Shown here: piece by piece, positions 18,272 to 33,594 of the stretch
Layout: every line of letters starts with the position of its first letter
Position numbering within the stretch: the stretch's first letter is position 1
DNA from: an uncultured Mediterraneibacter sp.
Lineage (GTDB): Bacteria; Bacillota; Clostridia; Lachnospirales; Lachnospiraceae
DNA length: 64,000 bases
Direction of reading: 5' to 3'
Assembly: GCA_944384505.1 (NCBI GenBank)
Contig: CALWTQ010000006.1
Location: forward strand, 16,223-80,222
Made by a program: the position numbers and the translations under genes
Notes under the pieces: model-generated
What the model was told of the DNA's origin: nothing
What the model saw: only the letters and a program-made list of their open reading frames with translations
Database searches by the model: none

Positions 18272-18444
18272 AAACAACGAACCCCGCCAGCCTTGCGGCT
18301 GGCGGGGTTCGTTGTTTTATAAGTTATCTAAAAGGAATGAGAGTAAAGTGCGGCGCCTGCTGGCGCCTGAACTTTATGAGGGGGAGATAGTTGTTTATCA
18401 ACTATCTGAGATAAAGTATAAAGGGAAAATGTGGAGAAAGTATG
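18272..18444 (+). repeat. Structured repeat R, copy 1
   Basis: First of three copies of a roughly 170-nt element. It begins with a 21-bp perfect hairpin (18272-18292 with 18297-18317) that can also terminate the upstream operon. Next comes the conserved segment AAAGGAATGAGAGTAAAGTG at 18331-18350, then a variable hairpin GGCGCC/GGCGCC inside a conserved TAAAGT/ACTTTA stem, then GGGGGAGATAGTT...AACTATCT, another hairpin, and a conserved tail ending AAAGTATG. The other copies are at 31997 and 33415. It fills the gap between the hydrolase and the LacI gene. Confidence 0.8.
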
Positions 18445-18510
18445 ATCAAAATATAAAAGAAATGGGAAAAATCTAAACTGGGAATTAACAAAATAGAAAA
18501 GCAGAACAAG

Positions 18511-18546
18511 AAAGCGGAGAACTGCGTAGCTGCAATTCTCCGCTTT
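18511..18546. terminator. Bidirectional terminator after the LacI gene
   Basis: AAAGCGGAGAA (18511-18521) pairs with TTCTCCGCTTT, with T-rich flanks on both sides. It sits 25 bp beyond the stop of the minus-strand LacI gene. Confidence 0.7.
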
Positions 18547-18570
18547 TCTATGAGTTAGAACAGGAAATGC

Positions 18571-19599
18571 TTACAGTATTGATCTGCATGATCCCCGCTT
18601 TGTCAGGACAGCATCATAGACAATATGCCGGGATGGTCCGCCCTGGAGCATTTCAAAGAGAAATTCAATTCCTGAAAGAGCCATTTGGGAGGCGGGCTGA
18701 CAGATCGTATCAAGGGCAGGGTTATAAAATTCTCCTGCGTCAATGCCGTCAAATCCCACAATGGAAATATCATCGGGAACTTTAAGTCCCATTGAAAAGA
18801 CTGCTTTGGCAGCGCCCAGTGCAAGGACGTCTGCAAAAGCGAAAACAGCTGTCATGTCCGGATTTCTTGAATAAAGCTGTTTCATAGCGTTAAAGCCAGT
18901 GAGATAGCCGGAATAAAAAGGCGCGTTCGTGTTGTCTGCGACTAAAGAGGGATTAAACGTAATGCCATGTTCTTCCAGAGCCCGCTGGTATCCCATAAAA
19001 CGCAGTCGGTTTGGCGTTAAGCTGTCTGATGTAGGATCGTAGATAAAGCCAATTTTTTTATGTCCGAGAGATATGAGATATTCTGTTGCGCGGAAGCCTT
19101 CCTTTTCGTCATCCACTTTTACGCTGGAATACAGATCCAGAGGGATAGAACTGTCCGCGGATACGGTGAGCAGTACACAGGGAATACCCAGCTGGCGGAA
19201 GCGCTGGGCTGAGTAGCCGAAAGTACCTCCGATCAGAATCACTCCGCATAAGTTCCTGCTTCCTGCTTCCTGGATGGCAAGGTCGAGCTCATCTACATGG
19301 TCATCTACGTTCTGAATGATCAGTGAGTATCCTCTCAGTGATGTTTTCTCTTCAATCACACGAATCATCGTATGAAAGAAGGGGTTTGTAATACCTTTTA
19401 CCAGGATTGCGATATTTTTTGAACTGTTTGCCTTCAGGTTACGCGCGCTTGAGTTTGGGACGTAGTTGTAGTCTTTCATAACCTTCATGACCCGCTGTCG
19501 GACTTCGTTGCTTACGTATCCCGTGTTGTTAATAACACGGGATACAGTAGAGATGCCAACCCCGGATTCTCTTGCAATATCTTTGATTGTAACTCTCAT
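18571..19599 (-). CDS. LacI family transcriptional repressor
   Basis: A 342-residue LacI-type regulator: helix-turn-helix at residues 1-50 (VTIKDIARESGVGISTVSRVINNTGYVS), hinge NSSARNLKAN, and a sugar-binding effector domain (GFDGIDAGEFYNPALDTICQP). The start is ATG 19599 with GGAG 6 bases upstream; a TTG further upstream lacks a site. It lies downstream of GH3 and GH94 genes and has its own promoter, so it probably controls the glucan cluster. Candidate operators lie in the 25.4-25.8 kb divergent promoter region. Effector unknown. Confidence 0.9.
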   Translation of the reverse strand: MRVTIKDIARESGVGISTVSRVINNTGYVSNEVRQRVMKVMKDYNYVPNSSARNLKANSSKNIAILVKGITNPFFHTMIRVIEEKTSLRGYSLIIQNVDDHVDELDLAIQEAGSRNLCGVILIGGTFGYSAQRFRQLGIPCVLLTVSADSSIPLDLYSSVKVDDEKEGFRATEYLISLGHKKIGFIYDPTSDSLTPNRLRFMGYQRALEEHGITFNPSLVADNTNAPFYSGYLTGFNAMKQLYSRNPDMTAVFAFADVLALGAAKAVFSMGLKVPDDISIVGFDGIDAGEFYNPALDTICQPASQMALSGIEFLFEMLQGGPSRHIVYDAVLTKRGSCRSIL

Positions 19600-19640
19600 A
19601 ACATACTCCAATTTCTAAAGACTTTGATCATACTACTCGT

Positions 19641-19649
19641 ATTATACCA
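19641..19649 (-). promoter_or_regulatory. Extended -10 promoter of the LacI gene
   Basis: On the minus strand TGGTATAAT is a TGn-extended -10 box about 40 bp before the start codon. No good -35 is seen, as is usual for this type. Confidence 0.6.
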
Positions 19650-19691
19650 GAAATAACCATTTTGTGTACAATTCCGCATTGCTTTCCTTCC

Positions 19692-22600
19692 TTACAATCC
19701 GGCGTTATGTCTGTAGAGCCGGTCATGTTCTCCGGGCCAGATGTTAAGATCTGACGCTGGGGCCTTCGGTACGGGCAGCGATTCGGATACGGCTGGGACA
19801 TAGATATGTATTTCAGAAGCATTCATATCCAGGCAGTTTTTATGAATTGAGATGCCGTCATCCCGGTATTTCCCGGCGCAGGAAACGGAGGGAAGTGTCT
19901 GCCCGTTCTGCTTTACGTACACATGCCTGTCAGATGGATGTTCAGAGTGCGAGTGTCCGGCCTGCGCGTCATCATTTCTGCGTGAAATGTGATAGTGGAA
20001 TGTAAATTCATGTCCAAAACATCGGTAATGCAGCCTGAGACCGTCAAGAGAAGCGGGGAGCACAGGGCAGAGGCGCAGGCTGTCTCTTACAATATGGATG
20101 CCCAGCAGATCGCAGATGAGCCTCTTCATATAGAGGCCCGGTCCGCTGGAGTAAATTCTCCATCCTCCCTTAACTTCAATAGATCCGTCTCTCAGTTTCT
20201 CGAAATTCTCTGCGTAATCATACCGGTTCATAAAGGCCCCTTCCGAGCTGCTGAAATACAGATTGCTCTGCCGCAGCGCTGCGTTTGGGACGGTGTCTTT
20301 TAAGTTGATGGGCGTGATCTCAAGAAGTGCTCGCCATGCAGCTTCCGGCTTGTTTGCTTTGCACAAAGTTTCAATGTAGCGGATATGCGCGTGCGTATAC
20401 TGCAGGCTGATTTCGCGGCCTACATTTGCTGCCTGTTCCGCCCGTTTGAAAAGCGTGCTGACTCCGCCGTGATAAGCAGCAGGGCGGTCCATCAGCCTAA
20501 CTCCGTCAGGAAAATGCAGATGCTTTTCGATCAGCCGGAGGTTGGTTTCTGCCAGATTTACTCCGGCTATATCCGCGAGGATCGAGCGGGTCAGGGGGAG
20601 CAGGCGTAGATGGATTCCGGTTTTTTTGTCATTCGGATGCAGCATGGGCACAAAATCATTATTCGGGGAGCTGTCCGCGCGGACTACGAACCCGGGAATG
20701 ATTCCATCGACTATCAGGTATTTATGGAAATCTTCTTTTATATATCCGGCCAGTACACTAAGGTGGTCGGCCAGCTCCGGTTCCATCCCGGCAAGTATTT
20801 CAGACAAAAGGCGGAGCACCTGATAAGCAAGCGCCTGAGTCCATGAGCTGACAAGCTTCTTTTTCATGGATTCATCAGAGGGCTGCAGTGTATCGTCCCA
20901 GTCTCCGCCGCCATAAGAGATAAGATGTGTATCCGGCAGGAAGCGGCGCTCAATGGAGGCGATGGCGAGCCGCACATGGTCGATCAGCGGTTTACCCTGC
21001 TCCTTCGGGGTATCGATAAACGGCAGTGTCTCTGAGAGGATAGACGTGTCTCCGGTGTGGCGGATATAATCCCCGATGCATTTCAGCGGCCAGAAGATCA
21101 CATCGCCGTGGCAGTCTTCCTGACAGTCTGTATACCGGTCAAACATAAACCACTGGGGCCATTCTCCTGAAATAGCCTTCTGATGTGAAAAGATATTGAG
21201 AAGGACTTCTCTTGCCAAAGGAAACTTTTGAACCGCCATGAACAGTTCCATGGGCCCCTGGCAGACGTCTCTGGTCCCCCATGCAGCGCCGCCGGACTGT
21301 TCCAGCCCGTGAGGCACGGCAAAATGCACCAGGGCGTTATGGCAGTACCAGCGGGATATGAGATTGAGCTTTTCGATATCCCGGCGGCGTTCTCCGTCCT
21401 TTTCCAGATGAAATCCGTTTAAAAAGCTGTCGTAGTACTCCAGATATTTTGCGCGTTCCGATGTGGAATCTGCAGGTTCGCAAGTTGGCACGGCGTCATC
21501 TTCCAGTGCTCCGCGGATAACGATCTGGAAATGAGAGCGGCCTTTTACGGAAAGCGTCAACAGTCCTGTGTTCTGCGGCATGTTGTCTTCAAAGAAGATG
21601 CGGTCGTCGCTCCATGTATAAGAGGTATTTGGGAGATACAGGTCGTAGTGCAGTCCGGGGTAAGGTGAGTTGTCCATGGGCTCGGGACGGAAGTGGAGCA
21701 CGCTTCCTGTGCCGGCGGATTCTCCTGGGGCAGCAGCTTCTTTTGCACTGCCGGTTCCTTCTGTGCTGTCCGGTACTTCCACGAGGATAGGGGATGTAAA
21801 TTCATGGGTCCCCAGAACAAGCTGACCGGTCATTATAAAATCATAGGCTTCTCCTTTCAGGCTCTCCACTTCTGTGATAATCTTAGTATCGTCCTTTACT
21901 GCAAAGGAAGTAACGCGAAGAATATCGTCCTCCAGCTGGTATAGCCAGCGGGAATAATTCAGGCCCGCTTCGAAAGCAGCGGGAAGTTTCAGCAGGCGGT
22001 ATTCTCCGTTGAGAAATATCCATATCCGCTGGCCGCTGTTTTTCAACAGATCCATAAGCCCCCTCGAAACAGAGAGCAGCTTATGCTTGGTTGTGTTTCC
22101 GATGACTGTCTGAGCGTTGAATATGCCGGAAATATAGTTTGTAGATGTAATCAGCCTGTTGTTAATCCTCTCCGGCGATGCGGCGGTAGTGATGATGTTT
22201 CCGTGAGGCCGTTCGGTGAGGAGTTCCTTCTGCTGGAGTACAACATGCGAATAGTCCGGAGTGAAGAACGACATCAGATTTCCGCCATGATATTCTTCCT
22301 GCAGGCGTTGAGGATACATTTCTGATATTTCTTCTTCTCCCCACTGATCTGAGGTGAAAGGTTCGCCGAAGCAGGAACGGATCTTAACCGGCGGAACGGG
22401 TCTGCCGTCTCCCGCGGGATAAAAATCTCGATAAATCTTTCGGATTTCATCCATATATTCTATAGAACTGACACTTTTCGGGTGATTGTCTTTAAAGCAG
22501 CTGAAAAATACTGTGTGTCTGGAACCATCCAGCCGGAAACGTTCGCTTTGCAGAGCAGTGTAGCTGTTTTCGAATTGCAGCGTCTGGCTTGGCAGATCTT

Positions 22601-23240
22601 TGGAGAGGGCGGCAGGAATCTGACAGGCTTTATATGAGAGGCCGAAAAACTGCAGACCATCTGTAGAATACTGTACAGCTCTGGCGTTTAATATTCCCTG
22701 GTGGATATATGGATATCCTGTGCTCTGGACCAGATTCTGACGGGAACATATGTGATATCCGTTTTTGTCCATGATGACTGTGTGCCCCAGGTACTGAGCG
22801 GCGTAGAGTTCATTTTCCAGCAGGGAAGGCTTGTCCGCTATTCCTACATCCTGGCCGCAGACCAGGTCTATGGTCCTAGCTTCCCCGGTTGTGCGAAGGG
22901 ACACATCCCAGAACCATGCGGATGGGCTGGGGATGAAGGTCACTTCGTAGGATATGTCTCTGATTTCTCCCTGGTATTTCAGGCATCTGCTGTCCTGGAT
23001 CAGGCGGGATCCGGAGTGGATGCCTAAAAGCGGATAATGGGAGATCTTAGCTCCGGAGGGATCCTCCTCATATATGCGGAGCCAGATATTGTTGGCGGAG
23101 CCTTCCTTTTTACTTCCGATAAATCCGTTCAGCATAACCGGTCCGGACTCGAAGCTGTAGACGTCGCCTGTGGTCAGGAAAGAGTAAACTGTATTCTCGC
23201 ACTGATACCGGATTGAACCGGGAATATGTGTAAGCTTCAT
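19692..23240 (-). CDS. GH94 family glycoside phosphorylase (probably 1,2-beta-oligoglucan phosphorylase)
   Basis: An 1182-residue GH94 protein: an N-terminal beta-sandwich region and a catalytic (alpha/alpha)6 barrel (about residues 600-1000). Barrel motifs are WGTRDVCQGP, EDCHGDVIFWPL and the catalytic-acid motif GGGDWDDT (near residue 778, matching the DWND of cellobiose phosphorylase). Cellobiose phosphorylases are about 800 residues; this length fits 1,2-beta-oligoglucan phosphorylases, which release glucose-1-phosphate from sophoro-oligosaccharides. No signal peptide, so cytoplasmic. The ATGA overlap with the GH3 gene shows translational coupling. The GH3 partner and transporter match the Listeria innocua sophorose-type cluster. 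Substrate is inferred. Confidence 0.82.
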   Translation of the reverse strand: MKLTHIPGSIRYQCENTVYSFLTTGDVYSFESGPVMLNGFIGSKKEGSANNIWLRIYEEDPSGAKISHYPLLGIHSGSRLIQDSRCLKYQGEIRDISYEVTFIPSPSAWFWDVSLRTTGEARTIDLVCGQDVGIADKPSLLENELYAAQYLGHTVIMDKNGYHICSRQNLVQSTGYPYIHQGILNARAVQYSTDGLQFFGLSYKACQIPAALSKDLPSQTLQFENSYTALQSERFRLDGSRHTVFFSCFKDNHPKSVSSIEYMDEIRKIYRDFYPAGDGRPVPPVKIRSCFGEPFTSDQWGEEEISEMYPQRLQEEYHGGNLMSFFTPDYSHVVLQQKELLTERPHGNIITTAASPERINNRLITSTNYISGIFNAQTVIGNTTKHKLLSVSRGLMDLLKNSGQRIWIFLNGEYRLLKLPAAFEAGLNYSRWLYQLEDDILRVTSFAVKDDTKIITEVESLKGEAYDFIMTGQLVLGTHEFTSPILVEVPDSTEGTGSAKEAAAPGESAGTGSVLHFRPEPMDNSPYPGLHYDLYLPNTSYTWSDDRIFFEDNMPQNTGLLTLSVKGRSHFQIVIRGALEDDAVPTCEPADSTSERAKYLEYYDSFLNGFHLEKDGERRRDIEKLNLISRWYCHNALVHFAVPHGLEQSGGAAWGTRDVCQGPMELFMAVQKFPLAREVLLNIFSHQKAISGEWPQWFMFDRYTDCQEDCHGDVIFWPLKCIGDYIRHTGDTSILSETLPFIDTPKEQGKPLIDHVRLAIASIERRFLPDTHLISYGGGDWDDTLQPSDESMKKKLVSSWTQALAYQVLRLLSEILAGMEPELADHLSVLAGYIKEDFHKYLIVDGIIPGFVVRADSSPNNDFVPMLHPNDKKTGIHLRLLPLTRSILADIAGVNLAETNLRLIEKHLHFPDGVRLMDRPAAYHGGVSTLFKRAEQAANVGREISLQYTHAHIRYIETLCKANKPEAAWRALLEITPINLKDTVPNAALRQSNLYFSSSEGAFMNRYDYAENFEKLRDGSIEVKGGWRIYSSGPGLYMKRLICDLLGIHIVRDSLRLCPVLPASLDGLRLHYRCFGHEFTFHYHISRRNDDAQAGHSHSEHPSDRHVYVKQNGQTLPSVSCAGKYRDDGISIHKNCLDMNASEIHIYVPAVSESLPVPKAPASDLNIWPGEHDRLYRHNAGL

Positions 23241-25447
23241 GATATCTCCTTTTCAAATAGATGTTCAGTTATATATAATTCTTTGTTTAAGGTATCGCTG
23301 GAATTCCTTCCGATCATGATGAGAAAGCTCCCATTTTCGAAGGTTTTCCGGCCGTCTTTATAAAAAGAGAGCATTTCTTTTGTGATGCGAAAGGTTACGG
23401 TTTGTGATTCGCCTCCTTTTAGGAAGACTTTGGAAAAACCTTTCAGTTCCATCACCGGGCGCACGATGCTGGCTGACAGATCGCGGATGTAGAGCTGTAC
23501 GGTTTCGCATCCGTCTGTGTCAGAGACATTGGAAACCGTGACAGAAGCCGTGATGCAGGCGGTTAAAGAACCGATAGCAGAATCTTCCGGGAAGATCTGC
23601 AGATTACTGTACTGGAAGTCGGAGTAGCTCAGCCCGTATCCGAAACAGTAGAGAGGTTCGCTGGGGCAGTCCAAATACCGTGATACATAACGGGAATCCG
23701 CATTTTCCGAGCACAGCGGCCTACCGGTTCGGAAGTGGTTATAGTAGACCGGGATCTGTCCTGCTGTGTATGGAAAACTCATGGAAAGCCTTCCGGATGG
23801 ATTGATGGTGCCGGTGATTAGGTCTGCCAGGGCATTCCCTGATTCTGTTCCGAGAAACCATGCCTGAAGTATTGCGCTGCAGTATGGGACAATGGGTGCG
23901 ATTTCCAGAGGACGTCCGCTGAAAAGGATCAGGATGACTCGTTTTCCTGCGTCATGCACCTGCCGGATCAGCAGCTCCTGATTCGGGGAAAGGCGCAGGA
24001 ATGCTTTGCTTCCGCCTTCCCCGGTGTCGTCCTGATGCTCTCCGGCCGCGATAATTACAGTGTCACAGTCGTTAAAGCGGGCGGAAAAGTCCTTATCAGG
24101 CGCCGGGATATCCGGATTGCCGGACAGACAGCTCCCGAGATCCCCGCAGTCTTCGAAGTGAATAGCATCCGGCGAAATTTTGCCGCAGAGTCCTTCGTAT
24201 AGAGAAACGCCGGTTTTGATGCCCGCGGACCAGCCGCCCAGAATATAAGGGGATGCGGCAAAGGGGCCTGTAAGTCCGATCTTTCCTGAACCTCTGGAAA
24301 TGTTAAGAGGCAGGACTTTGTCATTTTTCAGAAGCACAGCAGATCCCGCGGCGATACGCCGGGCGGCTGCACGGTTCTTTTCAGAAAGGTGGAGGGCGGT
24401 TTCTGCGTCTGCGGAAGCGTCCTTGTATGGATTTTCGAATAAGCCAAGCTCGTTTTTCAGAGTCAGGATGCGGAGCACGGCGTCATCTATCATCTGTTCT
24501 GTGATCGCTCCGTTATCTAGAAGCTCCTGCAGATGATTAGTAAAGTGTGTGGACATCATTTCTATGTCTGTCCCTGCGACAAGACTTTTTTCTGCGGCTT
24601 CGTACCCGTCCTTTGCGGCGCCGTGTTCTATTAATTCGCCTACAGAGTTATAGTCCGAGATTACAGGGCTGTTAAATTTCCATTCTGTGCGAAGAATATC
24701 GCTGAGAAGTTTTTTGTTTGCTGTAGACGGAACAAGGTCTACTGTATTGAAAGCGGTCATTACCATTTTTGCCCCTGCGTCTATCGCTGCCCGGTAAGCC
24801 GGGAGGTAACTGTTCCGGAGTACATTATCTGATATGTCGACTGTATTATATTCACGTCCGCCCTCGGGAGCGCCGTAAGCGGCGAAGTGCTTCACACAGG
24901 AAGCGGCACATCCAGGGGCTGAGATGTCTTCTCCCTGGTACCCCTCAACGGAAGCGGCGCACAATTGTGAATTCAGCAGGGGATCCTCACCGAAAGATTC
25001 CATAACGCGGCCCCAGCGGGGATCGCGTACAAGATCAGCCATAGGAGCAAATGTAACGTGGATACCTGATGCGGCGCTTTCTTCGGCTGCAATCCGCGCT
25101 GCTTCTCGAACGCTGTCGGGGGAGAAACTGCAGCCCAAAGCCAGCGGGATCGGGAATATGGTTTTGAATCCGTGTATGATATCTGCCATAAAAAGCAGAG
25201 GGATCTTGTGCGGATCATTTTTTAAATGTTCTGTCTGAATATAAATCATATCTTCAGCATTGTCGCAGTTTAAAACACTTCCTATAGAAGCTGCGGTCTT
25301 CGGATGAACCCGCAGTCCGGTATCTGGCCCTGTCAATGGTGTAATGCAGTTAAAACCAAAGTTTACAGGCGCTAGCTGCGTCATCTGGGCCGCTTTTTCT
25401 TCCAATGTCATAGAAGAAAGCAGCTGGGAAAGTTGTTTTTGTGTCAT
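23237..25447 (-). CDS. GH3 family beta-glucosidase
   Basis: A 736-residue GH3 enzyme with an N-terminal TIM barrel (nucleophile Asp in VISDYNSVGE, about residue 260), an alpha/beta sandwich, and a C-terminal fibronectin-III-like domain (TVSNVSDTDGCETVQLYI). KHFAAYGAPEGGREYNTVDIS and the substrate-binding DPRWGRVMESFGEDP are typical. There is no signal peptide, so it acts on imported oligosaccharide. It is the first gene of the minus-strand operon, coupled to GH94, with its own consensus promoter and operator upstream. It may hydrolyse the sophorose left by the phosphorylase. Confidence 0.92.
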   Translation of the reverse strand: MTQKQLSQLLSSMTLEEKAAQMTQLAPVNFGFNCITPLTGPDTGLRVHPKTAASIGSVLNCDNAEDMIYIQTEHLKNDPHKIPLLFMADIIHGFKTIFPIPLALGCSFSPDSVREAARIAAEESAASGIHVTFAPMADLVRDPRWGRVMESFGEDPLLNSQLCAASVEGYQGEDISAPGCAASCVKHFAAYGAPEGGREYNTVDISDNVLRNSYLPAYRAAIDAGAKMVMTAFNTVDLVPSTANKKLLSDILRTEWKFNSPVISDYNSVGELIEHGAAKDGYEAAEKSLVAGTDIEMMSTHFTNHLQELLDNGAITEQMIDDAVLRILTLKNELGLFENPYKDASADAETALHLSEKNRAAARRIAAGSAVLLKNDKVLPLNISRGSGKIGLTGPFAASPYILGGWSAGIKTGVSLYEGLCGKISPDAIHFEDCGDLGSCLSGNPDIPAPDKDFSARFNDCDTVIIAAGEHQDDTGEGGSKAFLRLSPNQELLIRQVHDAGKRVILILFSGRPLEIAPIVPYCSAILQAWFLGTESGNALADLITGTINPSGRLSMSFPYTAGQIPVYYNHFRTGRPLCSENADSRYVSRYLDCPSEPLYCFGYGLSYSDFQYSNLQIFPEDSAIGSLTACITASVTVSNVSDTDGCETVQLYIRDLSASIVRPVMELKGFSKVFLKGGESQTVTFRITKEMLSFYKDGRKTFENGSFLIMIGRNSSDTLNKELYITEHLFEKEIS

Positions 25448-25523
25448 TTGATCACCTCTGTTTTCGGAAAATAATTTTTAATAATGCTTAAAATATAATA
25501 AATTTTATTGAATTTACTGGTGT

Positions 25524-25535
25524 GGTAACGATTCC
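25524..25535. promoter_or_regulatory. LacI-like operator for the GH3-GH94 operon
   Basis: GGTAACGATTCC is an imperfect palindrome around a central CG (LacI family style), about 17-28 bp downstream of the minus-strand -10 box. Confidence 0.5.
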
Positions 25536-25551
25536 CTAATATTTTAAGAAG

Positions 25552-25580
25552 ATTTTAAAATAAATAATCTGGATTGTCAA
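25552..25580 (-). promoter_or_regulatory. Promoter of the GH3-GH94 operon
   Basis: Minus strand: TTGACA (25575-25580), a 17-bp spacer, then TAAAAT (25552-25557), about 105 bp upstream of the GH3 start. The 25448-25812 region otherwise holds only AT-rich regulatory DNA. Confidence 0.7.
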
Positions 25581-25679
25581 TATAAACGTGAAAATAATAG
25601 ATAAGCTAAAAATATATGAGCTAAATGCACAAAAAATAGGCTGTAAAATCATAAATAGTATATAAAAATATATTTAACG

Positions 25680-25708
25680 TTGACATGAAAATGCGAGGGC
25701 TGTATAAT
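25680..25708 (+). promoter_or_regulatory. Consensus promoter of the glucan transporter operon
   Basis: A perfect TTGACA (25680-25685), 17-bp spacer and perfect TATAAT (25703-25708). Such a strong promoter normally needs repression, and an operator follows directly. Confidence 0.85.
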
Positions 25709-25732
25709 CTAGATAGAAAACGGAAAGGGAAA

Positions 25733-25748: not shown

Positions 25749-25812
25749 TAAATGGAGGTGAAAACAGGTTTTACGGGGAGAAAAATGATGTTAAGTAGTA
25801 AAGGAGGAGTGT

Positions 25813-26775
25813 ATGCGGCGTTTGGGAAAAGAAATATGGAAGAACAGGGCGCTTTATATCATGCTGCTGCCGGGACTTGTATGGTTTTTCATCTTTGCAT
25901 ATATGCCCATGGGAGGATTAACGCTCGCGTTTAAAGATTTTAATGCAAGTCTGGGAATCTGGGGAAGCCCGTGGTCGGGACTTGATAATTTTAGAGATCT
26001 GTTTCATGATCCGGCATTTTTGAGATCAGTATGGAGAACTCTGGCGATTAATATAGGAAAACTGATTGTGTCGTTTCCGGTACCGGTTGCGCTGGCGCTC
26101 TTGTTTAATGAGCTTCGGATGCGCAGATACAGCAAGGCGCTGCAGACAGTTTTTACATTTCCCAACTTTTTGTCATGGGTCATTACATCAGGAATTATTA
26201 TTAATATTCTGTCTAATTCAGGCCTGGTGAATGGGCTGCTGCAGACGATGGGCTTTGATATTGTTAATTTCCTTGGATCGGAGAAGATGTTCATTCCGAT
26301 GCTGTATCTCAGTGAGATATGGAAGACGTCAGGATGGTCGGCGATCATTTATATGGCATCGATCAGCGGGATAGATGCAGAGCAGTATGAAGCGGCTCAG
26401 CTGGACGGAGCATCCAGGTTTCAGATGATGATGCATATTACTCTGCCAAGTATTGCACCAACGATCATTGTAATGTTTATCCTGGCATCAGGAAATCTGA
26501 TGACGTCAAGTTTTGACCAGGTATTCAATTTGTCAAATGCGGCTACAAAGAACGTGGCAGAGGTTCTGGATATGTACATATACAGGATTACATTCCAGAG
26601 CTCTACGGATTTCTCGTTCTCAACGGCTGCCAGTCTGTTCAGGTCTGTGGTCAACATGATACTGCTGCTGGCGGCGGACTGGGGCGCAAAACGCATGGGC
26701 GGCACCGGACTGTTCGGCGGCGTGCAGAAAGGAGAGGGAAAGCGTGAAAAGAGAAAAGCAAGAAAAGCGGCATAA
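25813..26775 (+). CDS. ABC transporter permease (LplB type)
   Basis: A 320-residue permease of the LplB/YtcP group found in polysaccharide-derived sugar importers. About six membrane spans; EAA loop YEAAQLDGASRFQMMMHITLPSI (about residues 193-215). The start is ATG 25813 with AAGGAGGA upstream. The C-terminus ends in a Lys/Arg-rich tail whose codons overlap the start of the next permease by 32 bp. Confidence 0.9.
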   Translation: MRRLGKEIWKNRALYIMLLPGLVWFFIFAYMPMGGLTLAFKDFNASLGIWGSPWSGLDNFRDLFHDPAFLRSVWRTLAINIGKLIVSFPVPVALALLFNELRMRRYSKALQTVFTFPNFLSWVITSGIIINILSNSGLVNGLLQTMGFDIVNFLGSEKMFIPMLYLSEIWKTSGWSAIIYMASISGIDAEQYEAAQLDGASRFQMMMHITLPSIAPTIIVMFILASGNLMTSSFDQVFNLSNAATKNVAEVLDMYIYRITFQSSTDFSFSTAASLFRSVVNMILLLAADWGAKRMGGTGLFGGVQKGEGKREKRKARKAA

Positions 26776-27640
26776 GCGTAAGTTTTCTAAACTTGATATT
26801 GCGATTTTTATTATTCTGACTCTGGGCGCGATTGTGATTATTGTCCCGTTCTGGAATGTGCTTGTAGTATCATTTGCAACTCAGAAGGAATACGCGGACA
26901 ATCCGCTGATGCTCTTTCCTCAGAGCCCGACTCTGGACGCGTACAAGTATTTGTTCAAAGACGGGAAGATCTGGCAGGGATATATCAACACATTTAAACT
27001 GCTTATCATGGGACTTCCCTTAAGCGTGTTCCTGACAACCACCATGGCATACGGGCTGAGCAGGCCGAATTTCCCGGGCAGGAAAGTGATCATGTATCTG
27101 GTTGTGTTCACCATGATATTTAACGGCGGTATTGTGCCGATGTATCTAGTAATGAGACAGCTTGGACTGACAGGGTCTCTCTGGGCGGTAACTTTTTCTA
27201 CATGCTTCAGCGTATTTAACATGATCCTGATGATCAATTATTTCCAGAGCATTCCGGATTCGTTGATTGAGTCGGCACGGCTGGACGGTGCGGGAGAGTG
27301 GAAGATTCTTTTGAAGATCATCCTTCCGTTGTCGAAACCGATTATGGCGACGATTACTTTGTTCTACGGCGTGTCCATTTGGAATGAATGGTATGACGCC
27401 ATGATCTTTATCAGGGATCCTCAGAAACTGCCGCTGCAGAACGTGCTTCGAAGTATTATTCAGGAGACGGAGATCGCTACAAGCGCAACAGGAAGTATAG
27501 CTGCAATGGGCGGCCCTCAGTTTGACGATGGAATTAAAATGGCGGCGGTGTTTTTGACAATGGTGCCAATCATGTGTTTCTATCCGTTCTTACAGAAATA
27601 TTTTACGAAGGGAATCATGGTAGGAGCGGTTAAGATGTAA
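26744..27640 (+). CDS. ABC transporter permease (YtcP/MalG type)
   Basis: A 298-residue second permease of the importer. GTG start at 26744 with GGAG upstream, inside the end of the previous gene. The EAA loop is IESARLDGAGEWKILLKIILPLS. About six membrane spans and a basic N-terminal tail (KREKQEKRHKRKFSKLD). It forms the channel with the LplB-type protein; the ATPase must come from elsewhere. Confidence 0.9.
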   Translation: MKREKQEKRHKRKFSKLDIAIFIILTLGAIVIIVPFWNVLVVSFATQKEYADNPLMLFPQSPTLDAYKYLFKDGKIWQGYINTFKLLIMGLPLSVFLTTTMAYGLSRPNFPGRKVIMYLVVFTMIFNGGIVPMYLVMRQLGLTGSLWAVTFSTCFSVFNMILMINYFQSIPDSLIESARLDGAGEWKILLKIILPLSKPIMATITLFYGVSIWNEWYDAMIFIRDPQKLPLQNVLRSIIQETEIATSATGSIAAMGGPQFDDGIKMAAVFLTMVPIMCFYPFLQKYFTKGIMVGAVKM

Positions 27641-27664
27641 AAAGCAATAAAAGGAGGATGAAGA

Positions 27665-29245
27665 ATGAAAGGGTACAGAAAATGGACAAAAAGAGCTGTA
27701 TCGCTGGGGCTTGCAGCCCTGATGACCCTGTCGATGGCCGGGTGTTCAAACGGAGGAGGCTCAAATGGAGGTTCTTCTTCCGGCGGAGATGACGACACGC
27801 TTACGATTTCCTTTGGAGCGCTGGACAATGTTACAAAAGAACAGTGGGAGACAGATTTCCACCAGTTTTTTATGGACAAGTTCAATATCAAATGGGACTT
27901 TAACTACGTAGAGTGGGCTTCCTGGGATGAGAAGATGCGAGTGTGGATCAACTCAGGAGATCTGCCGGACGTATCCATCTGGAACTACAACTATACAGAT
28001 GCAAAAAATTATGCAGAACAGGGACTGCTCTATAAATTTCCGGACGACTGGAAAGAGAGATGGCCAAACGCGGCTATGGCGTATGAGGCAAGTCCACTGA
28101 ATACTCAGCTTGAGGAACGATTTGGAGGAACTTATGTGATGCTGCGTCCGACCTATGTATACCATGCGCAGACAGATCCGATGGTAAATCAGATCGGTGT
28201 AATCGGTATCCGGAAAGACTGGGCAGAGGCGGTTGGATTTGAAATTAAAGATGCTTATACAGTTGATGAGATTCTGGAATTTGCCCGTTTGATAAAAGAG
28301 CAGGATCCGGGCAATCTGGGCAGCAGCCTGATCCCGATCTGCTTTGACCCGGCGAATTCTCTGACATGTTTTGTAAGCTCTAACAGCAGACATTCGAGAA
28401 TTGAGACTGCCTTCTATAAAGAGGAGAACGGCGAATATCAGTGGGGACCGGCAGACGAGAGCGTGCTTGAGGCACTTAAGCTCTATCAGCAGGCGTACAG
28501 AGAGGGACTTCTTGACCCGGAATTCTACCTGCTCAACGACAATGATAAAGACAAGTTCTATATCAACGGAACTGTAGCAGTTTACCACATGGGCGGCGTG
28601 GCTGAGTTCCGCCAGACAGTAGATACTGAGATGAGGAACAACCTTCAGCTCAACAGCGACGATGTAGTGCATGAGGCAATTCTTCTTGGAAATGATGAGA
28701 AATACCACAACATTATCCTTGGTTCCAACTACTGGAGCAGTCTGATCTTCTCTCCGAATATCAGCGATGAGAACTTTGAAAGAATCATGGATCTGATCGA
28801 CTGGACATGTACGGAAGCGGGGCAGATAGTCTGCAACATGGGCATTGAAGGAGTTGACTGGGAGTACCAGGACGGAGAGGCTGTAAGCATCCTTCCGGAG
28901 GACACGAGCCTTCTGGATAAATACGGTCCGAGAGTGGAATCTATGTATATCCTTGAGGATGACTTCGCTGTAGTGAATCCATCTATCAAGGAAGAATACA
29001 GAAACCGTATGAACAGCCTTGCGCAGCTGAAGCTGGATTATGGCCAGGGCGAGTATGATGATATTGATTGGAATCAGGAATTCCATGTATCGAGGGCAAA
29101 AGACCGCGTACAATTTGACTATGGTCAGGAATATGCAAACCTGATCGTGCAGGAAGGTGATCTGGAGACAAACTGGAAAGCGTGGGTGGATGAAAAGATG
29201 CCGCTTGTACAGGAGTATCTGGATGAATTAAACAGCTCTTATTAA
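27665..29245 (+). CDS. Extracellular solute-binding lipoprotein (LplA/YtcQ type)
   Basis: A 526-residue binding protein. The signal peptide ends in the lipobox LSMAGC (cysteine near residue 29) and is followed by a Gly/Ser-rich linker (SNGGGSNGGSSSGGDDD). The long family-1 solute-binding fold (EYASWDEKMRVWINSGDLPDV-like segments, GVIGIRKDWAEAVGFE) is typical of importers of complex oligosaccharides. Neighbouring GH94 and GH3 enzymes suggest a beta-glucan oligosaccharide ligand, though GH127 downstream leaves arabinosides possible. Confidence 0.88.
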   Translation: MKGYRKWTKRAVSLGLAALMTLSMAGCSNGGGSNGGSSSGGDDDTLTISFGALDNVTKEQWETDFHQFFMDKFNIKWDFNYVEWASWDEKMRVWINSGDLPDVSIWNYNYTDAKNYAEQGLLYKFPDDWKERWPNAAMAYEASPLNTQLEERFGGTYVMLRPTYVYHAQTDPMVNQIGVIGIRKDWAEAVGFEIKDAYTVDEILEFARLIKEQDPGNLGSSLIPICFDPANSLTCFVSSNSRHSRIETAFYKEENGEYQWGPADESVLEALKLYQQAYREGLLDPEFYLLNDNDKDKFYINGTVAVYHMGGVAEFRQTVDTEMRNNLQLNSDDVVHEAILLGNDEKYHNIILGSNYWSSLIFSPNISDENFERIMDLIDWTCTEAGQIVCNMGIEGVDWEYQDGEAVSILPEDTSLLDKYGPRVESMYILEDDFAVVNPSIKEEYRNRMNSLAQLKLDYGQGEYDDIDWNQEFHVSRAKDRVQFDYGQEYANLIVQEGDLETNWKAWVDEKMPLVQEYLDELNSSY

Positions 29246-29270
29246 ACAGGAGATGACAATGGAGGGAAGG

Positions 29271-31208
29271 ATGGAGCAGAATAGGTTTATACCCTGGACA
29301 GCTATAAAGCTGTCCGGGGGTTTTTGGAAAAAATGGCAGGATAATGTGGCGGAAAACACGTCCAGGGCAATCTACGACAGATTTAAAGAGACGGGCAGAA
29401 TAGAGGCGATGAAACTGGAATGGAAAGAGGGTATGCCAAACAGGCCCCATATATACTGGGATTCGGATATTGCCAAATGGATGGAAGGTTCTGCTTATCT
29501 TCTGTATCTGAAAGATGACAAAGAGCTCAGAGAGCGTCTGGAGACAATCATTGATTATATCGAGAAAGGGCAGACAGAAGAAGGCTATTTTAATTCCGCT
29601 TATCTTACCTTCAAGCCGGATAAAACTTTTACGGACAGGACAGATCATGAGCTCTATACAGCGGGACATTTTATAGAAGCGGCAGTTGCGCACTATTACT
29701 CAACGGGGAGCGACCGGTTTCTGAAAATGATGATGAAGTTTGCCGACTATATCGAAGAGCGGTTCTGCGTGAAGAAAAACACTGTGTTTAAGACGCCGGG
29801 CCATGAGGAGATCGAGCTGGCGCTCGTGAGACTCTGGGAGGCTACAGGAGAAGAGAGATACCTTAAGCTTTCCAAACATTTCGTGGATACCCGCGGAACA
29901 GACAAAAATGAGAGAGTATTCTCTGTGAAGAACGGTACGTTTCCGGCGGATCCGCCGCTGGCAAACCAGCTGTATTATAATGATACATATGCTCAGGATG
30001 ACCGGCCGGCAAGAGAGATGAGAAAGGCCGGGGGGCATGCTGTCCGGGCCATGTATTTCTACACCGCGATGGCGGACATTGCAAGAGAATACGGCGATGA
30101 AGCTCTCCAGGAGGCGTGCACAAGCCTCTGGGATGACAGCGTGAATCGGAAGATGTACATCACCGGCGGCGTGAGCGCGGAGCGGTACGGAGAAGCGATC
30201 GGCACAGACTATGTGCTGCCGAATGATTATGCATATGCGGAGACATGCGCGTCTGTGGCCATGGCAAACTTTTCCCAGAGAATGTTCCGCCTCGAACAGG
30301 ATGGCAAATACATGGACATGATTGAGCGCCAGATGTACAATGGAGCACTGTCGGGTTTGTCCATGGATGGAAAAGGTTTCTTCTATGATAATGCGCTGCA
30401 GTGCAGGCCTGAAGTGGACGACTTCTTTGCCGGGATTCACGCGCTTCCGCTGCTGCCTCCTTACCGGAGACAAGAAGTGTTTGAATGCTCCTGCTGTCCT
30501 CCAAACATATACCGATTTATCGCGGCTCTCGGACAATACTTTTATTCTTCTGGGGGCGGCAGGGTCTACATTCACCAGTATGGAGAGAGTAATGCGGATG
30601 TGGAGATAAACGGACAGAAAGTAACGTTTCAGCAGGAGACAGACTATCCGTGGAACGGTAAGATTCTGATTACCGTGAAGCCTGAGGCAGATGTGAAGAT
30701 GACTGTCGCGGTGCGCGTGCCGGGCTGGTGCCTGGAAGGCGCGCAGATCAAGATAAACGGTGTGCCGGCGGATGCTTCGGATCTGGAGAATGGCTATGTT
30801 CTGCTTGAGAATATATGGCATGAGGGTGATACAATAGAACTGTATTTCCCCATGAAAATAGTAAAAATCGAGGGAAATCCCAAGATCGTGGAGTCGGCGG
30901 GGAAGACCGCGATCATGCGCGGACCGCTCGTCTACTGTGTAGAGGGTGTGGACAACGACTTTGATATCTTCGACCTGACCCTCGGCAGAATCGATGAAGA
31001 ATTCTCCTGTGAAAAAATGGAGATTCAGGGGTATCCGATCGTTGCGGTGAAAGGCAAAGGAATGCTTCACCAGGATCACAGCTGGGATGGAAAACTGTAC
31101 CGACGGTATAAAGCGGATTATAAAGAGACAGAGTTTACAGTCATTCCGTATTTCGCCTGGTGTAACAGGGAAGTATGCGATATGACCGTGTGGATCAGGA
31201 ATGATTAG
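29271..31208 (+). CDS. GH127 family (DUF1680) beta-L-arabinofuranosidase-like protein
   Basis: A 645-residue GH127 protein: (alpha/alpha)6 barrel plus C-terminal beta-sandwich. The zinc/nucleophile residues are visible: Glu and Cys in YAETCASVAM and the CSCCPPN cysteine cluster (about residue 405), the retaining cysteine-nucleophile arrangement known for bifidobacterial HypBA1. No signal peptide, so cytoplasmic. Start choice: ATG 29271 with GGAGGG upstream; ATG 29259 with AGGAG is equally possible. It ends the transporter operon, 5 bp before a mobile-like element. Actual sugar specificity in this operon is uncertain. Confidence 0.88.
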   Translation: MEQNRFIPWTAIKLSGGFWKKWQDNVAENTSRAIYDRFKETGRIEAMKLEWKEGMPNRPHIYWDSDIAKWMEGSAYLLYLKDDKELRERLETIIDYIEKGQTEEGYFNSAYLTFKPDKTFTDRTDHELYTAGHFIEAAVAHYYSTGSDRFLKMMMKFADYIEERFCVKKNTVFKTPGHEEIELALVRLWEATGEERYLKLSKHFVDTRGTDKNERVFSVKNGTFPADPPLANQLYYNDTYAQDDRPAREMRKAGGHAVRAMYFYTAMADIAREYGDEALQEACTSLWDDSVNRKMYITGGVSAERYGEAIGTDYVLPNDYAYAETCASVAMANFSQRMFRLEQDGKYMDMIERQMYNGALSGLSMDGKGFFYDNALQCRPEVDDFFAGIHALPLLPPYRRQEVFECSCCPPNIYRFIAALGQYFYSSGGGRVYIHQYGESNADVEINGQKVTFQQETDYPWNGKILITVKPEADVKMTVAVRVPGWCLEGAQIKINGVPADASDLENGYVLLENIWHEGDTIELYFPMKIVKIEGNPKIVESAGKTAIMRGPLVYCVEGVDNDFDIFDLTLGRIDEEFSCEKMEIQGYPIVAVKGKGMLHQDHSWDGKLYRRYKADYKETEFTVIPYFAWCNREVCDMTVWIRND

Positions 31209-31213
31209 GTGAG

Positions 31214-31974
31214 CAGCTATTTAGATCATTAACACTTTCCGTCCAAAAGTGTCCGGAAGAGGAGCGGATGTTTGAAACGTGTTCTTGGAGAGGGGACATG
31301 TGTGTACTGCTCCGTTCCGGAATCTGGGAAGGATCTAAGAAGCCGGAGAGCTGTTTAAGGGCAAAGCGGCGCGCAGGGTAACTCGTTTCACTCAAACATC
31401 CCCTGCGCGCCGCTTAACAACATCTCTCCGCCTTCTAAGATCTTCCATCAGATTCCTCCAAAGTCACAGTCCCCACACGCCCCTCTCCAAGAACTTACGC
31501 TTCAAACATCCGCTCCCCTTCCTGCGCATTCCTAGACGGAAGTGTCATTGTCCTAAATAGGCTGAACCGTGCAATTGGCGCGGCTTGAGGGCCTTCGACC
31601 TCGAAAAACTTCCGGCCGCGCCTGCTGCTTGTGACGGCTATATATTCATTAACTTCCGGCTCGAAAGGCCCAGAAAACAGCCCCATTTCAAGATAAATTC
31701 TGCGGGGATGGAGGATGGCGAGGGGCGCCTTCGGAAGGGGATTAGCGAAACTTAAAGTACCGGATACGGATGTTAGGGCAGCCGGGGCGATTGTCTGAGA
31801 GAAGCGAGTTGAGCCCCGGCTGTCCTTGCCTTTAATCCGTATCCGGTACTTTGTAGTTTCCCTTATCCCCTGGAGCGAAGCCCGGAGCCATCCTCCATCC
31901 CCGCAGAATATGTTTTGGCAAGGACTCTGTTTTCGGACGTTTTTCAAAAGGGCGTTAGTGAACTTTATAGCTGT
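31214..31974 (-). mobile_element. MITE-like hairpin element, copy A
   Basis: A 761-bp element without a transposase. The ends form imperfect 20-bp terminal inverted repeats (CAGCTATTTAGATCATTAAC at left; right end reads CAGCTATAAAGTTCACTAAC on the other strand; 16 of 20 identical). Inside are two giant imperfect hairpins, about 31261-31505 and 31698-31914, and a smaller GGCGCGGC/GCCGCGCC stem between. The last 14 bp (GAACTTTATAGCTG) are repeated at 31977-31990. Copy B, inverted, is at 63163-63922. It begins 5 bp after GH127 and explains most of the gene-free stretch to 32386. Confidence 0.8.
31495..31686 (-). other. 63-codon open frame inside element A
   Basis: An ATG-to-TAA frame (starts MGLFSG, ends MFEA) that has the same length, start and stop in copy B (63451-63642). 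Differences between the copies fall about evenly on all three codon positions, so coding selection is not evident. It may simply be carried by the element; no ribosome binding site is clear. Confidence 0.25.
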
Positions 31975-31996
31975 TGAACTTTATAGCTGCAGTGAC

Positions 31997-32163
31997 AAAG
32001 AGAAACCCATCAGCCATCTGACTGACGGGTTTCTCTTTATAAGCTAATTAAAAGGAATGAGAGTAAAGTGTGACGTTCGAAACGTCTATATTTTATAAGG
32101 GGGAAGATAGCTGTTATCAACTATCTGGCTATAGTATATCCAAGGAATGTGGACAAAATATGA
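31997..32163 (+). repeat. Structured repeat R, copy 2
   Basis: Second copy of the 170-nt repeat, directly after element A. Leading hairpin AAAGAGAAACCC...GGGTTTCTCTTT (31997-32038), the identical 20-nt core at 32051-32070, a different inner stem GACGTT/AACGTC, then AGATAGCT...AACTATCT and the conserved tail. The inner stem shares no sequence with copies 1 and 3 but pairs perfectly. Confidence 0.8.
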
Positions 32164-32386
32164 TGAGATTCTAAAAGAAAAGAGAAAAAAATAAATTGTA
32201 AATTAAGAAAGTGGGAAAATTCTCGCGGAAGTAACGTGATGTAAGAAAAAGAAGAGTATAATATGGAAAAGTAACATTTTATCCTTTGTGGATGAAATGT
32301 TAACAAAAAGAAAGAATTTGAATGAAAAATATTGCATTTTGCTTCGAAATTTATTAAAATTAAAGAAAAAGAATGGAGGGAATCAT

Positions 32387-32659
32387 ATGACAACAGTAAG
32401 TCTTCGTTTTGATGATGATATGAAAAAAGAACTTGATGAAATGTGTGAAGAAATGGGGATGAATCTTACTACATTTTTTATGATATATGCAAAAAAGGTT
32501 TTACGTGATCGAAAAATTCCTTTTGAGATTTCCGCACCTGTTGATCCTTTCTATTCTGAATCAAATGTAAAAAGAATAAAAAAAGCAGATCAGCAGATAA
32601 GAGAAGGTAAAGTTGTTGTCAAGAGTATTAGTGAACTGGAGAAAATGGAAGATGAGTAA
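32387..32659 (+). CDS. Orphan RelB/DinJ-type antitoxin
   Basis: A 90-residue RelB/DinJ antitoxin. The N-terminal ribbon-helix-helix (TTVSLRFDDDMKKELDEMCEEMGMNLTTFFM) binds DNA as a dimer; the C-terminal part (IREGKVVVKSISELEKMEDE) normally neutralises a RelE-type toxin. The start is ATG 32387 with GGAGGG 6 bases upstream. A toxin gene would be expected to overlap the stop; instead the overlapping ATG at 32652 runs directly into integrase sequence. So the toxin body seems lost and the antitoxin is alone. Confidence 0.85.
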   Translation: MTTVSLRFDDDMKKELDEMCEEMGMNLTTFFMIYAKKVLRDRKIPFEISAPVDPFYSESNVKRIKKADQQIREGKVVVKSISELEKMEDE

Positions 32660-33320
32660 GATTACATATGCAAAGGGCAGATTGTATGAGAATCTGATCG
32701 TAACCGCATTAGGAACAGGGATGCGCGCGGGGGAACTTCTTGGATTGACAGACGCAGATTTGAATTTCAGAAAACGGGAGATCACGATCAACAAGACGCT
32801 AGTGTATATCAAAGACCTGTCAACCGGAAAATATGTTTTTAAATATCAGACTCCAAAGACAGAGAGCGGAAAGCGCGTGATACCGATGCAGGAAAGTGTA
32901 TACAAGGCATTGAGAAAGCAGAGGACTCAGAAAAAAGAAATGCAGATCGCGTCTGATGCATGGGAGCCGTTAAAGGGATTTGAAAATCTTGTGTTTGTCG
33001 GTAGGAACGGAAAACCAGTATCAGAACATGCTTTTCAGTCCGCGCTTAACTGGATCGTAAATGCGATCAACAAAGACCGTCAGAAACAGGCTGAGAAAGG
33101 TAAAAAGGATTTTGTGCCGATGGAGCACATCTATCCTCACGCGCTCCGGCATACGTTTGCGACAAGGTGCTTTGAAGCAGGGATTGAAGCAAAGACAGTA
33201 CAGAAGTATCTCGGTCATTCTTCTGTAGCGATCACGTTGGATATTTACACGCATGTCACGAACGATAAGGCAAAAGAAGATATGAATAAACTGGAAGAAC
33301 TCTATAAAAAGATTATATAG
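32652..33320 (+). pseudogene. Tyrosine integrase remnant (catalytic domain only)
   Basis: 222 codons of a tyrosine recombinase catalytic domain: Arg in TGMRAGELLGL, Lys in ESGKRVIPM, HALRHTFATR, LGHSSVAITLDIYTHV with the nucleophile Tyr. All five classic catalytic positions are present. The N-terminal arm- and core-binding domains (about 170 residues in related Tn916-type integrases) are missing. Its first codons (MSKITY) look like the start of the lost toxin, coupled to the antitoxin stop, so a deletion probably joined the two. Without its DNA-binding half it is unlikely to recombine. Confidence 0.85.
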
Positions 33321-33414
33321 CAACTCTATAAACAACTATCTATCACCGCAACATTCCAGCAGATAACAAAAGTGTCCGAAAGGTGTCCAAGACAGTGGAA
33401 GCGGAGAGCTATGG

Positions 33415-33594
33415 ACAACGAAAACCCGCTAACCACAAGGGCTAACGGGTTCCGTGTTGTTATAGTTATCTAAAGGAATGAGAGTAAAGTGCGGCATCCC
33501 GGCTACCGGGATGCCTATACTTTATGAGGGGGGAGATAGTTGTTTTACCAACTATCTGCTTCACAGTATACCCAGAAAATGTGTCCAAAGTATG
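33415..33594 (+). repeat. Structured repeat R, copy 3
   Basis: Third copy, starting 94 bp after the integrase stop. Leading hairpin 33415-33460 (ACAAC...GTTGT with AACCCG/CGGGTT), core at 33472-33490 lacking one A, inner stem GGCATCCCGG/CCGGGATGCC inside TAAAGT/ACTTTA, then AGATAGTT...AACTATCT and tail. The 33321-33414 stretch upstream carries GTGTCCGAAAGGTGTCC, similar to GTGCCCCAAAGGTGCCC upstream of copy 1, so the homology extends beyond the hairpins. Confidence 0.8.

What the first reader, a model, noticed from the sequence alone, without database searches (positions are those of the whole stretch)
18272..33594. Three-copy ~170-nt repeat with conserved single-stranded core and covarying hairpins
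Copies at 18272-18444, 31997-32163 and 33415-33594 share AAAGGAATGAGAGTAAAGTG, then GGGGGAGATAGTT..AACTATCT and a tail ending AAAGTATG. Between these the inner stem is GGCGCC/GGCGCC, GACGTT/AACGTC or GGCATCCCGG/CCGGGATGCC, and the leading hairpin also differs in every copy but always pairs. Changed sequence with kept pairing points to selection on structure: a non-coding RNA, or a recombination site that folds as single-stranded DNA. One copy follows an integrase remnant, and similar GTGTCC/GTGCCC stretches precede copies 1 and 3, hinting at a mobile-element origin. I cannot match it to a known riboswitch or ribozyme.
Basis: partly seen in the sequence, partly recalled or inferred. Interest (0 to 1): 0.82.

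Follow-up and report, generated by a model that had tools for sequence, protein, structure and literature searches.

The report
Multicopy regulatory small RNA of gut bacteria
The three repeats look like genes for a small regulatory RNA, not found in the public RNA family library, that many gut bacteria of the Lachnospiraceae carry in several copies and that probably blocks translation of other genes under the control of a two-component sensor system.

Summary
The repeat is real: three copies in the window, none elsewhere in the genome, and 56 of 58 same-genus genomes carry it. But the RNA is on the other strand: G-U pairs far outnumber A-C mismatches when it is read as the minus strand. A minimal form lacking the last hairpin-and-strand pair occurs in other genera. 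The 5' domain is in 104 of 397 genomes of the family. No Rfam family matches. A VanR-like response regulator lies within 3 kb in 25 of 51 model-positive genomes, divergent in 25 of 26 pairs. Best reading: a multicopy, two-component-controlled RNA that pairs with translation starts, working like csRNAs and LhrC but not matching either by the features tested. The integrase probably belongs to an element inserted at the terminator. Transcription, targets and the regulator link are untested.

The parts
18270..18408 (-). sRNA copy 1 (short-hairpin class), inferred transcript
   Evidence: R1 model hit G000:C6:34530-34629; ends inferred from -10 box and terminator hairpin
31995..32127 (-). sRNA copy 2 (short-hairpin class, diverged), inferred transcript
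   Evidence: R1 hit G000:C6:48251-48348
33413..33558 (-). sRNA copy 3 (long-hairpin class), inferred transcript
   Evidence: R1 hit G000:C6:49672-49779
18415..18461 (-). promoter of copy 1: -10 TATACT (18420-18415) and conserved upstream block (18461-18427)
32133..32179 (-). promoter of copy 2: -10 TATACT (32138-32133) and upstream block (32179-32145)
33565..33611 (-). promoter of copy 3: -10 TATACT (33570-33565) and upstream block (33611-33577)
18385..18407 (-). 5' hairpin P1 of copy 1
32105..32126 (-). 5' hairpin P1 of copy 2
33534..33557 (-). 5' hairpin P1 of copy 3
18376..18384 (-). single-stranded C-rich seed 1 (CCCCCUCAU) of copy 1
32095..32104 (-). single-stranded C-rich seed 1 (UCCCCCUUAU) of copy 2
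33524..33533 (-). single-stranded C-rich seed 1 (CCCCCCUCAU) of copy 3
18352..18367 (-). covarying hairpin P2 of copy 1
32072..32086 (-). covarying hairpin P2 of copy 2
33493..33515 (-). covarying hairpin P2 of copy 3
18331..18350 (-). conserved seed 2 of copy 1 (its first nucleotides may pair with AAAGU before P2)
32051..32070 (-). conserved seed 2 of copy 2
33472..33491 (-). conserved seed 2 of copy 3
18272..18317 (-). terminator hairpin of copy 1
31997..32038 (-). terminator hairpin of copy 2
33415..33461 (-). terminator hairpin of copy 3, proposed attachment site of the adjacent integrase element
33620..34600 (-). GH25-LysM lysozyme gene whose stop lies just upstream of copy 3's promoter; recurrent neighbour
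17264..18202 (+). alpha/beta hydrolase gene convergent with copy 1; recurrent neighbour
32613..33320 (+). 3' part of a tyrosine integrase gene ending about 95 nt from copy 3's terminator

Best explanation
Each copy is a stand-alone gene for a trans-acting small RNA on the minus strand. Shown by sequence: a promoter with a -10 box and no good -35 box, a conserved motif of 11-bp-phased half-sites in the -35 position, a 5' hairpin 6-8 nt after the -10 box (so the transcript should begin at the hairpin), a conserved C-rich single strand, a covarying hairpin, a second conserved strand and a terminator hairpin. Inferred: a VanR-like response regulator, encoded with its kinase divergently next to the RNA in about half of the model-positive genomes, switches the copies on. 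Inferred: the two strands (CUCCCCCCUCAU and CUCUCAUUCCUUU) pair with G-rich ribosome-binding sites and AUG codons of target mRNAs and block translation; several copies raise the dose. The C-rich strand is probably the ancestral working part, because minimal forms in other genera keep only it between hairpin and terminator.
For: Strand: wobble asymmetry 23:3, 5:0, 126:48. Structure: covariation, z-scores. Promoter: 232 of 237 distinct copies could be anchored on a -10 box and stack upstream without gaps; -10 to hairpin is 7 nt in 191, 6 in 39, 8 in 2; CAYA-N7-CAYA in 208 of 217 full and 27 of 31 minimal forms, the latter not used to define it; autocorrelation peaks at lag 11 (0.45 and 0.46); in the own genome the motif, with up to 3 mismatches, occurs only at the 3 copies. 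Minimal forms: all 31 distinct loci have a hairpin and a T-run after the C-rich strand under a loose test. Distribution: 51 of 397 family genomes with model R1, 104 of 397 with the 5'-domain pattern, reversed pattern 0. Regulator: within 3 kb in 25 of 51 R1-positive genomes (a lower bound: 3 of the 47 that have it were cut from the list and not placed), 25 of 26 pairs divergent; present in 47 of 51 R1-positive against 156 of 346 other genomes, Fisher p 2.9e-11, not corrected for kinship. Kinase motif downstream of it in 14 of 14 loci with enough flank. Analogy: csRNAs and LhrC.
Against: No transcript was seen. The sigma-70 scan and the strict terminator scan did not pick up the proposed minus-strand promoters or terminators. 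Pairing energies of both strands with 859 gene starts in fetched loci were no better than with shuffled strands, so no target is supported. The regulator is found in 156 genomes without an R1 hit, and in the own genome it lies on another contig. Spo0A_C-only proteins also stand beside 19 copies, and all 23 genomes with a close match to them carry the RNA or its 5' domain; they could bind instead. The 18-nt core was the search key for most copies and CCCCTCA for the rest, so the invariance of these stretches is partly ascertainment.
Confidence: 0.7

Rival explanations
1. A trans-acting small RNA as above, but driven by Spo0A or by the small Spo0A_C-only proteins found beside it; the half-sites read TGTCnAA-N4-TGTTnAA on the other strand, close to tandem 0A boxes (0A box TGTCGAA recalled).
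For: A Spo0A_C-only gene is the nearest upstream gene at 19 of 237 copies; matrix; of 23 genomes with a match of 140 bits or more to these proteins, 20 are R1-positive and all 23 carry the 5' domain, against 107 of 397 carrying either. The query was built from RNA neighbours, so this is biased, and kinship is not corrected for. On recounting I raised this rival from 0.20 to 0.22 and lowered the main reading from 0.72 to 0.70.
Against: 31 of 51 R1-positive genomes lack such a match; the own genome has only Spo0A and a diverged relative; the G of the 0A box core is nearly absent (3% at that matrix column).
Confidence: 0.22
2. The RNA works by binding a protein (a sponge or scaffold) rather than by pairing with mRNAs.
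For: Two conserved strands held between hairpins; no excess of target pairing.
Against: The strands read as complements of ribosome-binding sites and AUG; minimal forms keep the C-rich strand alone, as in UCCC-type small RNAs.
Confidence: 0.12
3. A recombination or attachment site that folds as single-stranded DNA, moved by the nearby integrase.
For: Integrase next to some copies; clustered copies.
Against: G-U over A-C asymmetry, promoter and terminator architecture, most copies without this integrase as neighbour, 56 of 58 genomes of the genus.
Confidence: 0.03
4. A plus-strand RNA with SD-like loops (GGGGGGAGA, AAAGGAATG), for example a decoy for a GGA-binding protein.
For: The plus strand also folds, and the strict terminator scan flags hairpins with T-runs on the plus strand but not the minus strand at the copies.
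Against: Wobble asymmetry, conserved minus-strand promoter at fixed distance, minimal forms ending in hairpin and T-run on that strand.
Confidence: 0.04

Closest known systems
csRNAs (cia-dependent small RNAs) of Streptococcus, CiaRH regulon
   Same: Several copies per genome, promoters with an 11-bp-phased direct repeat for a response regulator, stem-loop plus terminator, unpaired region complementary to SD and AUG (passages of PMC3091779 and PMC8186281).
   Different: TTTAAG-N5-TTTAAG absent (0 of 248 exact, 4 of 248 with up to one mismatch per half); other family of bacteria; second conserved strand and covarying hairpin in the window's clade; the candidate regulator is VanR-like.
LhrC1-5 of Listeria monocytogenes, LisRK-controlled
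   Same: Multicopy, two-component dependent, UCCC-bearing CU-rich strands, one of which covers an SD (passages of PMC4132741).
   Different: No Rfam match of the copies to any family at gathering score; different layout, with one C-rich strand instead of three CU-rich motifs.
UCCC-type sRNAs of low-GC bacteria (RNAIII, RsaE, SprD, FsrA as named in PMC4132741)
   Same: C-rich anti-SD strand.
   Different: No Rfam match at gathering score; here multicopy with its own promoter box.
sRNA or tRNA genes used as attachment sites by integrative elements (recalled)
   Same: An integrase gene ends right beside the RNA's terminator.
   Different: att borders were not mapped here.

Membership tests
csRNA (CiaR-dependent small RNAs) | CiaR direct repeat TTTAAG-N5-TTTAAG in the promoter | tested here: not met
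   0 of 248 exact, 4 of 248 with up to one mismatch in each half
csRNA (CiaR-dependent small RNAs) | transcription dependent on CiaRH | not testable with these tools
   needs mutants; CiaR orthology not examined
csRNA (CiaR-dependent small RNAs) | unpaired region complementary to SD and AUG between stem-loops | tested here: met
   sequence only: C5-7UCAU in 203 of 217 full and 28 of 31 minimal forms, all selected by a pattern holding CCCCTCA; pairing in the cell untested
LhrC | match to its RNA family model | tested here: not met
   no family matched the copies at gathering score in the window or in 40 further loci; no LhrC among the weak matches at copies 1 and 3; that LhrC is in Rfam is recalled
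LhrC | LisRK dependence | not testable with these tools
   needs mutants
Any Rfam 15 family | score at or above gathering threshold | tested here: not met
   only SRP RNA in the window; only tRNAs in 40 further loci
Integron attC or other folded single-stranded DNA site | structure kept at DNA level, no strand bias of wobble pairs | tested here: not met
   G-U to A-C 23:3, 5:0, 126:48
Riboswitch or cis leader | stands in the 5' UTR of a co-directional gene | tested here: not met
   nearest downstream gene convergent in 177 of 228 cases by simple gene finding; RNA ends in a terminator hairpin
VanR vancomycin-resistance regulator (for the neighbouring response regulator) | NCBIfam VanR cut-off | tested here: not met
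   best VanR model 279.7 bits, cut-off 350

The most novel reading that the evidence does not exclude
An undescribed signalling branch of the Lachnospiraceae: one VanR-like two-component system whose dedicated promoter box serves only a multicopy small-RNA family, so that the sensor's output through this box is purely post-transcriptional. The RNA is modular: an ancestral hairpin plus C-rich seed, to which one clade of gut commensals added a second hairpin and a second conserved seed, while mobile elements insert at its terminator.
Probability: 0.3. Interest if true: 0.75.

Novelty: new member of a known kind. Interest (0 to 1): 0.6.

Why it matters
Little is known of post-transcriptional control in the Lachnospiraceae (own knowledge). 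This gives one concrete RNA family with an inferred start, end, structure, candidate regulator and named carriers among gut bacteria ([Ruminococcus] torques, Coprococcus comes, Dorea, Faecalicatena, Claveliimonas, Mediterraneibacter). If it works as proposed, the design of streptococcal csRNAs and Listeria LhrC arose in a further lineage with other parts, and two-component control through RNA in gut commensals becomes testable.

Tried and rejected
Single-stranded-DNA recombination site: rejected by wobble asymmetry. Plus-strand RNA: rejected by the same and by promoter placement. Short peptide gene on either strand: looked at by eye only; ATG is not kept and hairpin lengths break the frame; not tested formally. 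Known RNA family: none. Extended complement elsewhere in the genome: none for seed 2 (20-mer, up to 3 mismatches), two non-RNA matches with 3 mismatches for the C-rich strand. Target prediction on 859 gene starts of fetched loci: no excess over shuffled strands. The Spo0A_C neighbour as sole regulator: not excluded, weakened by 31 of 51 R1-positive genomes without a close match. Counting G-U in minimum-energy folds was confounded by unequal pair numbers (minus 75 of 1688, plus 202 of 1830, which taken alone would speak for the plus strand) and replaced, which compares G-U with A-C inside the same stems. Literature: (search listings with abstract starts); passages seen in PMC11109978, PMC8632094, PMC4132741, PMC10267692, PMC8186281, PMC3091779. 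In these listings and passages I saw no description of this RNA; the two structured-RNA surveys have 0 mentions of Lachnospiraceae, Ruminococcus, Coprococcus, Dorea and Blautia in the main text.
Full report
What was checked. The 20-nt core is exact at 18331, 32051 and 33472; dinucleotide-preserving shuffles expect none, and the whole genome of the window holds these three only. Copy 2 is the most diverged. No Rfam family reaches its gathering score at any copy; the only hit in the window is SRP RNA. Below that score copy 1 has matches down to E 0.0008, but to microRNA and other hairpin models on both strands of the terminator hairpin, and copy 3 has four at E 1.2 or worse; I take these as chance matches to hairpins.

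Spread. In the same genus 56 of 58 genomes hold the core with at most two mismatches, 1 to 5 copies each, often clustered. A covariance model (R1) built from 93 copies found matches at E 0.01 or better in 51 of 397 genomes of the family, 44 of 334 genera. A second model from 108 matches found 9 of 295 genomes drawn from the order, all nine in the same family, and 1 of 54 drawn from the class, the own genome. All three searches used strict filters that lose weak matches. The window is therefore probably from Mediterraneibacter or a near relative (inference; lineage).

Which strand. In a functional RNA, G-U keeps a pair and A-C does not. Over distinct stems the minus strand shows 23 G-U to 3 A-C in the variable hairpin (92 stems; all three A-C come from one stem that the script misplaced), 5 to 0 in the 5' hairpin (28) and 126 to 48 in the terminator (104). 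This selects RNA over DNA and the minus strand over the plus strand. A cruder count on minimum-energy folds gave more G-U on the plus strand (202 of 1830 pairs against 75 of 1688), but it mixes in pairs formed on one strand only, so I set it aside.

Anatomy on the minus strand. Over 237 distinct copies with the 18-nt core, 232 have a -10 box TATA(C/A)T, followed after 6 to 8 nt (7 in 191) by the 5' hairpin, so the transcript should start at the hairpin. Upstream, without gaps, stand TTTCTTTTA and CATAYTTT-n-G-n-CACATTT, with no good -35 box. Script 80 found CAYA-N7-CAYA in 208 of 217 full forms and 27 of 31 minimal forms, against shuffled means of 0.7 and 0.1; the autocorrelation of the upstream region peaks at lag 11 (0.45 and 0.46). 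Eleven-base phasing in place of the -35 box is typical of activator sites of OmpR-type response regulators (recalled) and equals the csRNA promoter repeat TTTAAG-N5-TTTAAG in phasing. In the own genome the motif occurs at the three copies only. The rest is: hairpin P1, a single-stranded CUCCCCCCUCAU, hairpin P2 with strong covariation, ACUUUACUCUCAUUCCUUU and the terminator hairpin. In the genus, copies fall into a short-P2 class (64) and a long-P2 class (58), cut at 30 nt; 37 of 56 genomes have both.

A minimal form. Weak R1 matches led to RNAs with the same promoter and P1, the C-rich strand, and then at once a terminator. Of 248 distinct 5'-domain loci 31 lack the string CTCTCATTCCTTT; of these 31, L102 is a full form with a changed seed, and L131 and L192 keep P2 but not the seed. 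All 31 have a hairpin and a T-run after the C-rich strand under a loose test. The 5'-domain pattern is in 104 of 397 family genomes and 88 of 334 genera; the reversed pattern was 0. So the C-rich strand is the shared part, and P2 plus seed 2 is probably an addition of the clade that holds the window (inference; loss elsewhere is not excluded).

Neighbours. From script 39, by a simple longest-ORF method: a GH25-LysM lysozyme gene is the nearest upstream gene, co-directional, at 58 copies, an alpha/beta hydrolase gene convergent downstream at 42, a Spo0A_C-only gene upstream at 19, a tyrosine integrase convergent downstream at 12 (Pfam). A response regulator with the OmpR-type output domain, followed by a histidine kinase (five loci printed, Pfam on one, kinase motif in 14 of 14 loci with enough flank), stood out because it is divergent and upstream in 27 of 28 rows of RNA-bearing loci that hold it; two of these rows are the same gene, and two further loci held it without a pattern match. 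Counted over whole genomes, it is within 3 kb of an RNA copy in 25 of 51 R1-positive genomes, and 25 of 26 such pairs are divergent (one genome gives two pairs; 3 genomes that have the gene were cut from the list and could not be placed). It is present at E 1e-100 or better in 203 of 397 genomes: 47 of 51 R1-positive and 156 of 346 others, Fisher p 2.9e-11, or 83 of 104 with the 5' domain against 120 of 293. Kinship is not corrected for. NCBIfam calls it VanR-like but below the VanR cut-off, so it is no resistance regulator by that test. In the own genome an 83% identical copy lies on another contig than the RNAs. I take it as the likeliest activator. Spo0A-type proteins are the rival: 23 genomes have a match of 140 bits or more to the Spo0A_C-only neighbours, 20 of them R1-positive and all 23 with the 5' domain, although that query was built from RNA neighbours; 31 of 51 R1-positive genomes, the own one included, lack such a match.

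How it probably works. Signal, kinase, response regulator, binding at the phased half-sites, transcription of all copies, pairing of the C-rich strand and of seed 2 with G-rich ribosome-binding sites and start codons, block of translation. The RNA's design is shown by sequence; every step of action is inferred. A direct attempt at targets failed: over 859 gene starts of fetched loci neither strand pairs better than its shuffles. Some recurrent zinc-ribbon and response-regulator leaders rank high there, but this is not evidence; across the leaders of the regulator listed the pairing is mostly moderate. The general scans for sigma-70 promoters and strict terminators also missed the proposed sites, the first probably because no -35 box exists, the second probably because the U-tract is broken.

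The integrase. In 14 of 15 rows of script 83 the RNA core lies 154 to 214 nt past the end of the integrase match, convergent, with the terminator between; the 15th row is the first piece of a split match, two rows appear to stem from one genome and one is the window's own. Terminators beside integrases that are only 67-73% identical to the query still read almost alike. This fits an element that uses the terminator as attachment site and could explain the GTGTCC and GTGCCC repeats beside copies 1 and 3 as arm sites or scars (inference). Against it: the same terminator also stands at copies such as those in L007 and L010 for which no integrase hit was listed. Loci were chosen for holding the RNA, so this is not an unbiased census. 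The RNA is absent from the plasmid collection at the sensitivity used, matches one unannotated phage record and four IMG/VR contigs.

Known relatives. By design it is a csRNA- or LhrC-like RNA: multicopy, apparently tied to a two-component system, with an unpaired anti-SD strand ending in CAU (passages). It is not a csRNA by promoter (0 of 248 exact) and matched no RNA family model. The searches showed no paper on it in their listings; two surveys of structured RNAs do not mention Lachnospiraceae, Ruminococcus, Coprococcus, Dorea or Blautia in their main text. I therefore file it as a new RNA family of a known kind.

Noticed in passing
window 32288-32659 (+): A RelB/DinJ-like antitoxin reading frame overlaps the start of the open frame of the 3' integrase piece, between copies 2 and 3; it looks like a decayed mobile element.
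   Followed up: partly
window 62857-63118 (-): Bacterial large SRP RNA gene (Rfam RF01854, 185 bits).
   Followed up: no
L106, L111, L120, L132, L145 and others, upstream of the sRNA: A family of Spo0A_C-only proteins (about 110-170 aa open frames, no receiver domain seen in the one scanned) sits next to the sRNA; two genomes of one genus (G142, G440) carry 9 and 11 matches to it, Spo0A itself possibly included.
   Followed up: partly
G072 and G396 (L303, L304): Two genomes of one genus carry four 5'-domain copies each, on several contigs; the two copies looked at are minimal forms.
   Followed up: no
L079, L090, L258: Zinc-ribbon proteins with GGAATGGGAGG- or GGAATGGAGG-type leaders recur among the best pairing partners of seed 2, but shuffled controls score as well.
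   Followed up: no
window 31749-31860 (+): A long near-perfect inverted repeat (AAGTACCGGATACGGAT ... ATCCGTATCCGGTACTT) around a GC-rich stretch, seen by eye.
   Followed up: no
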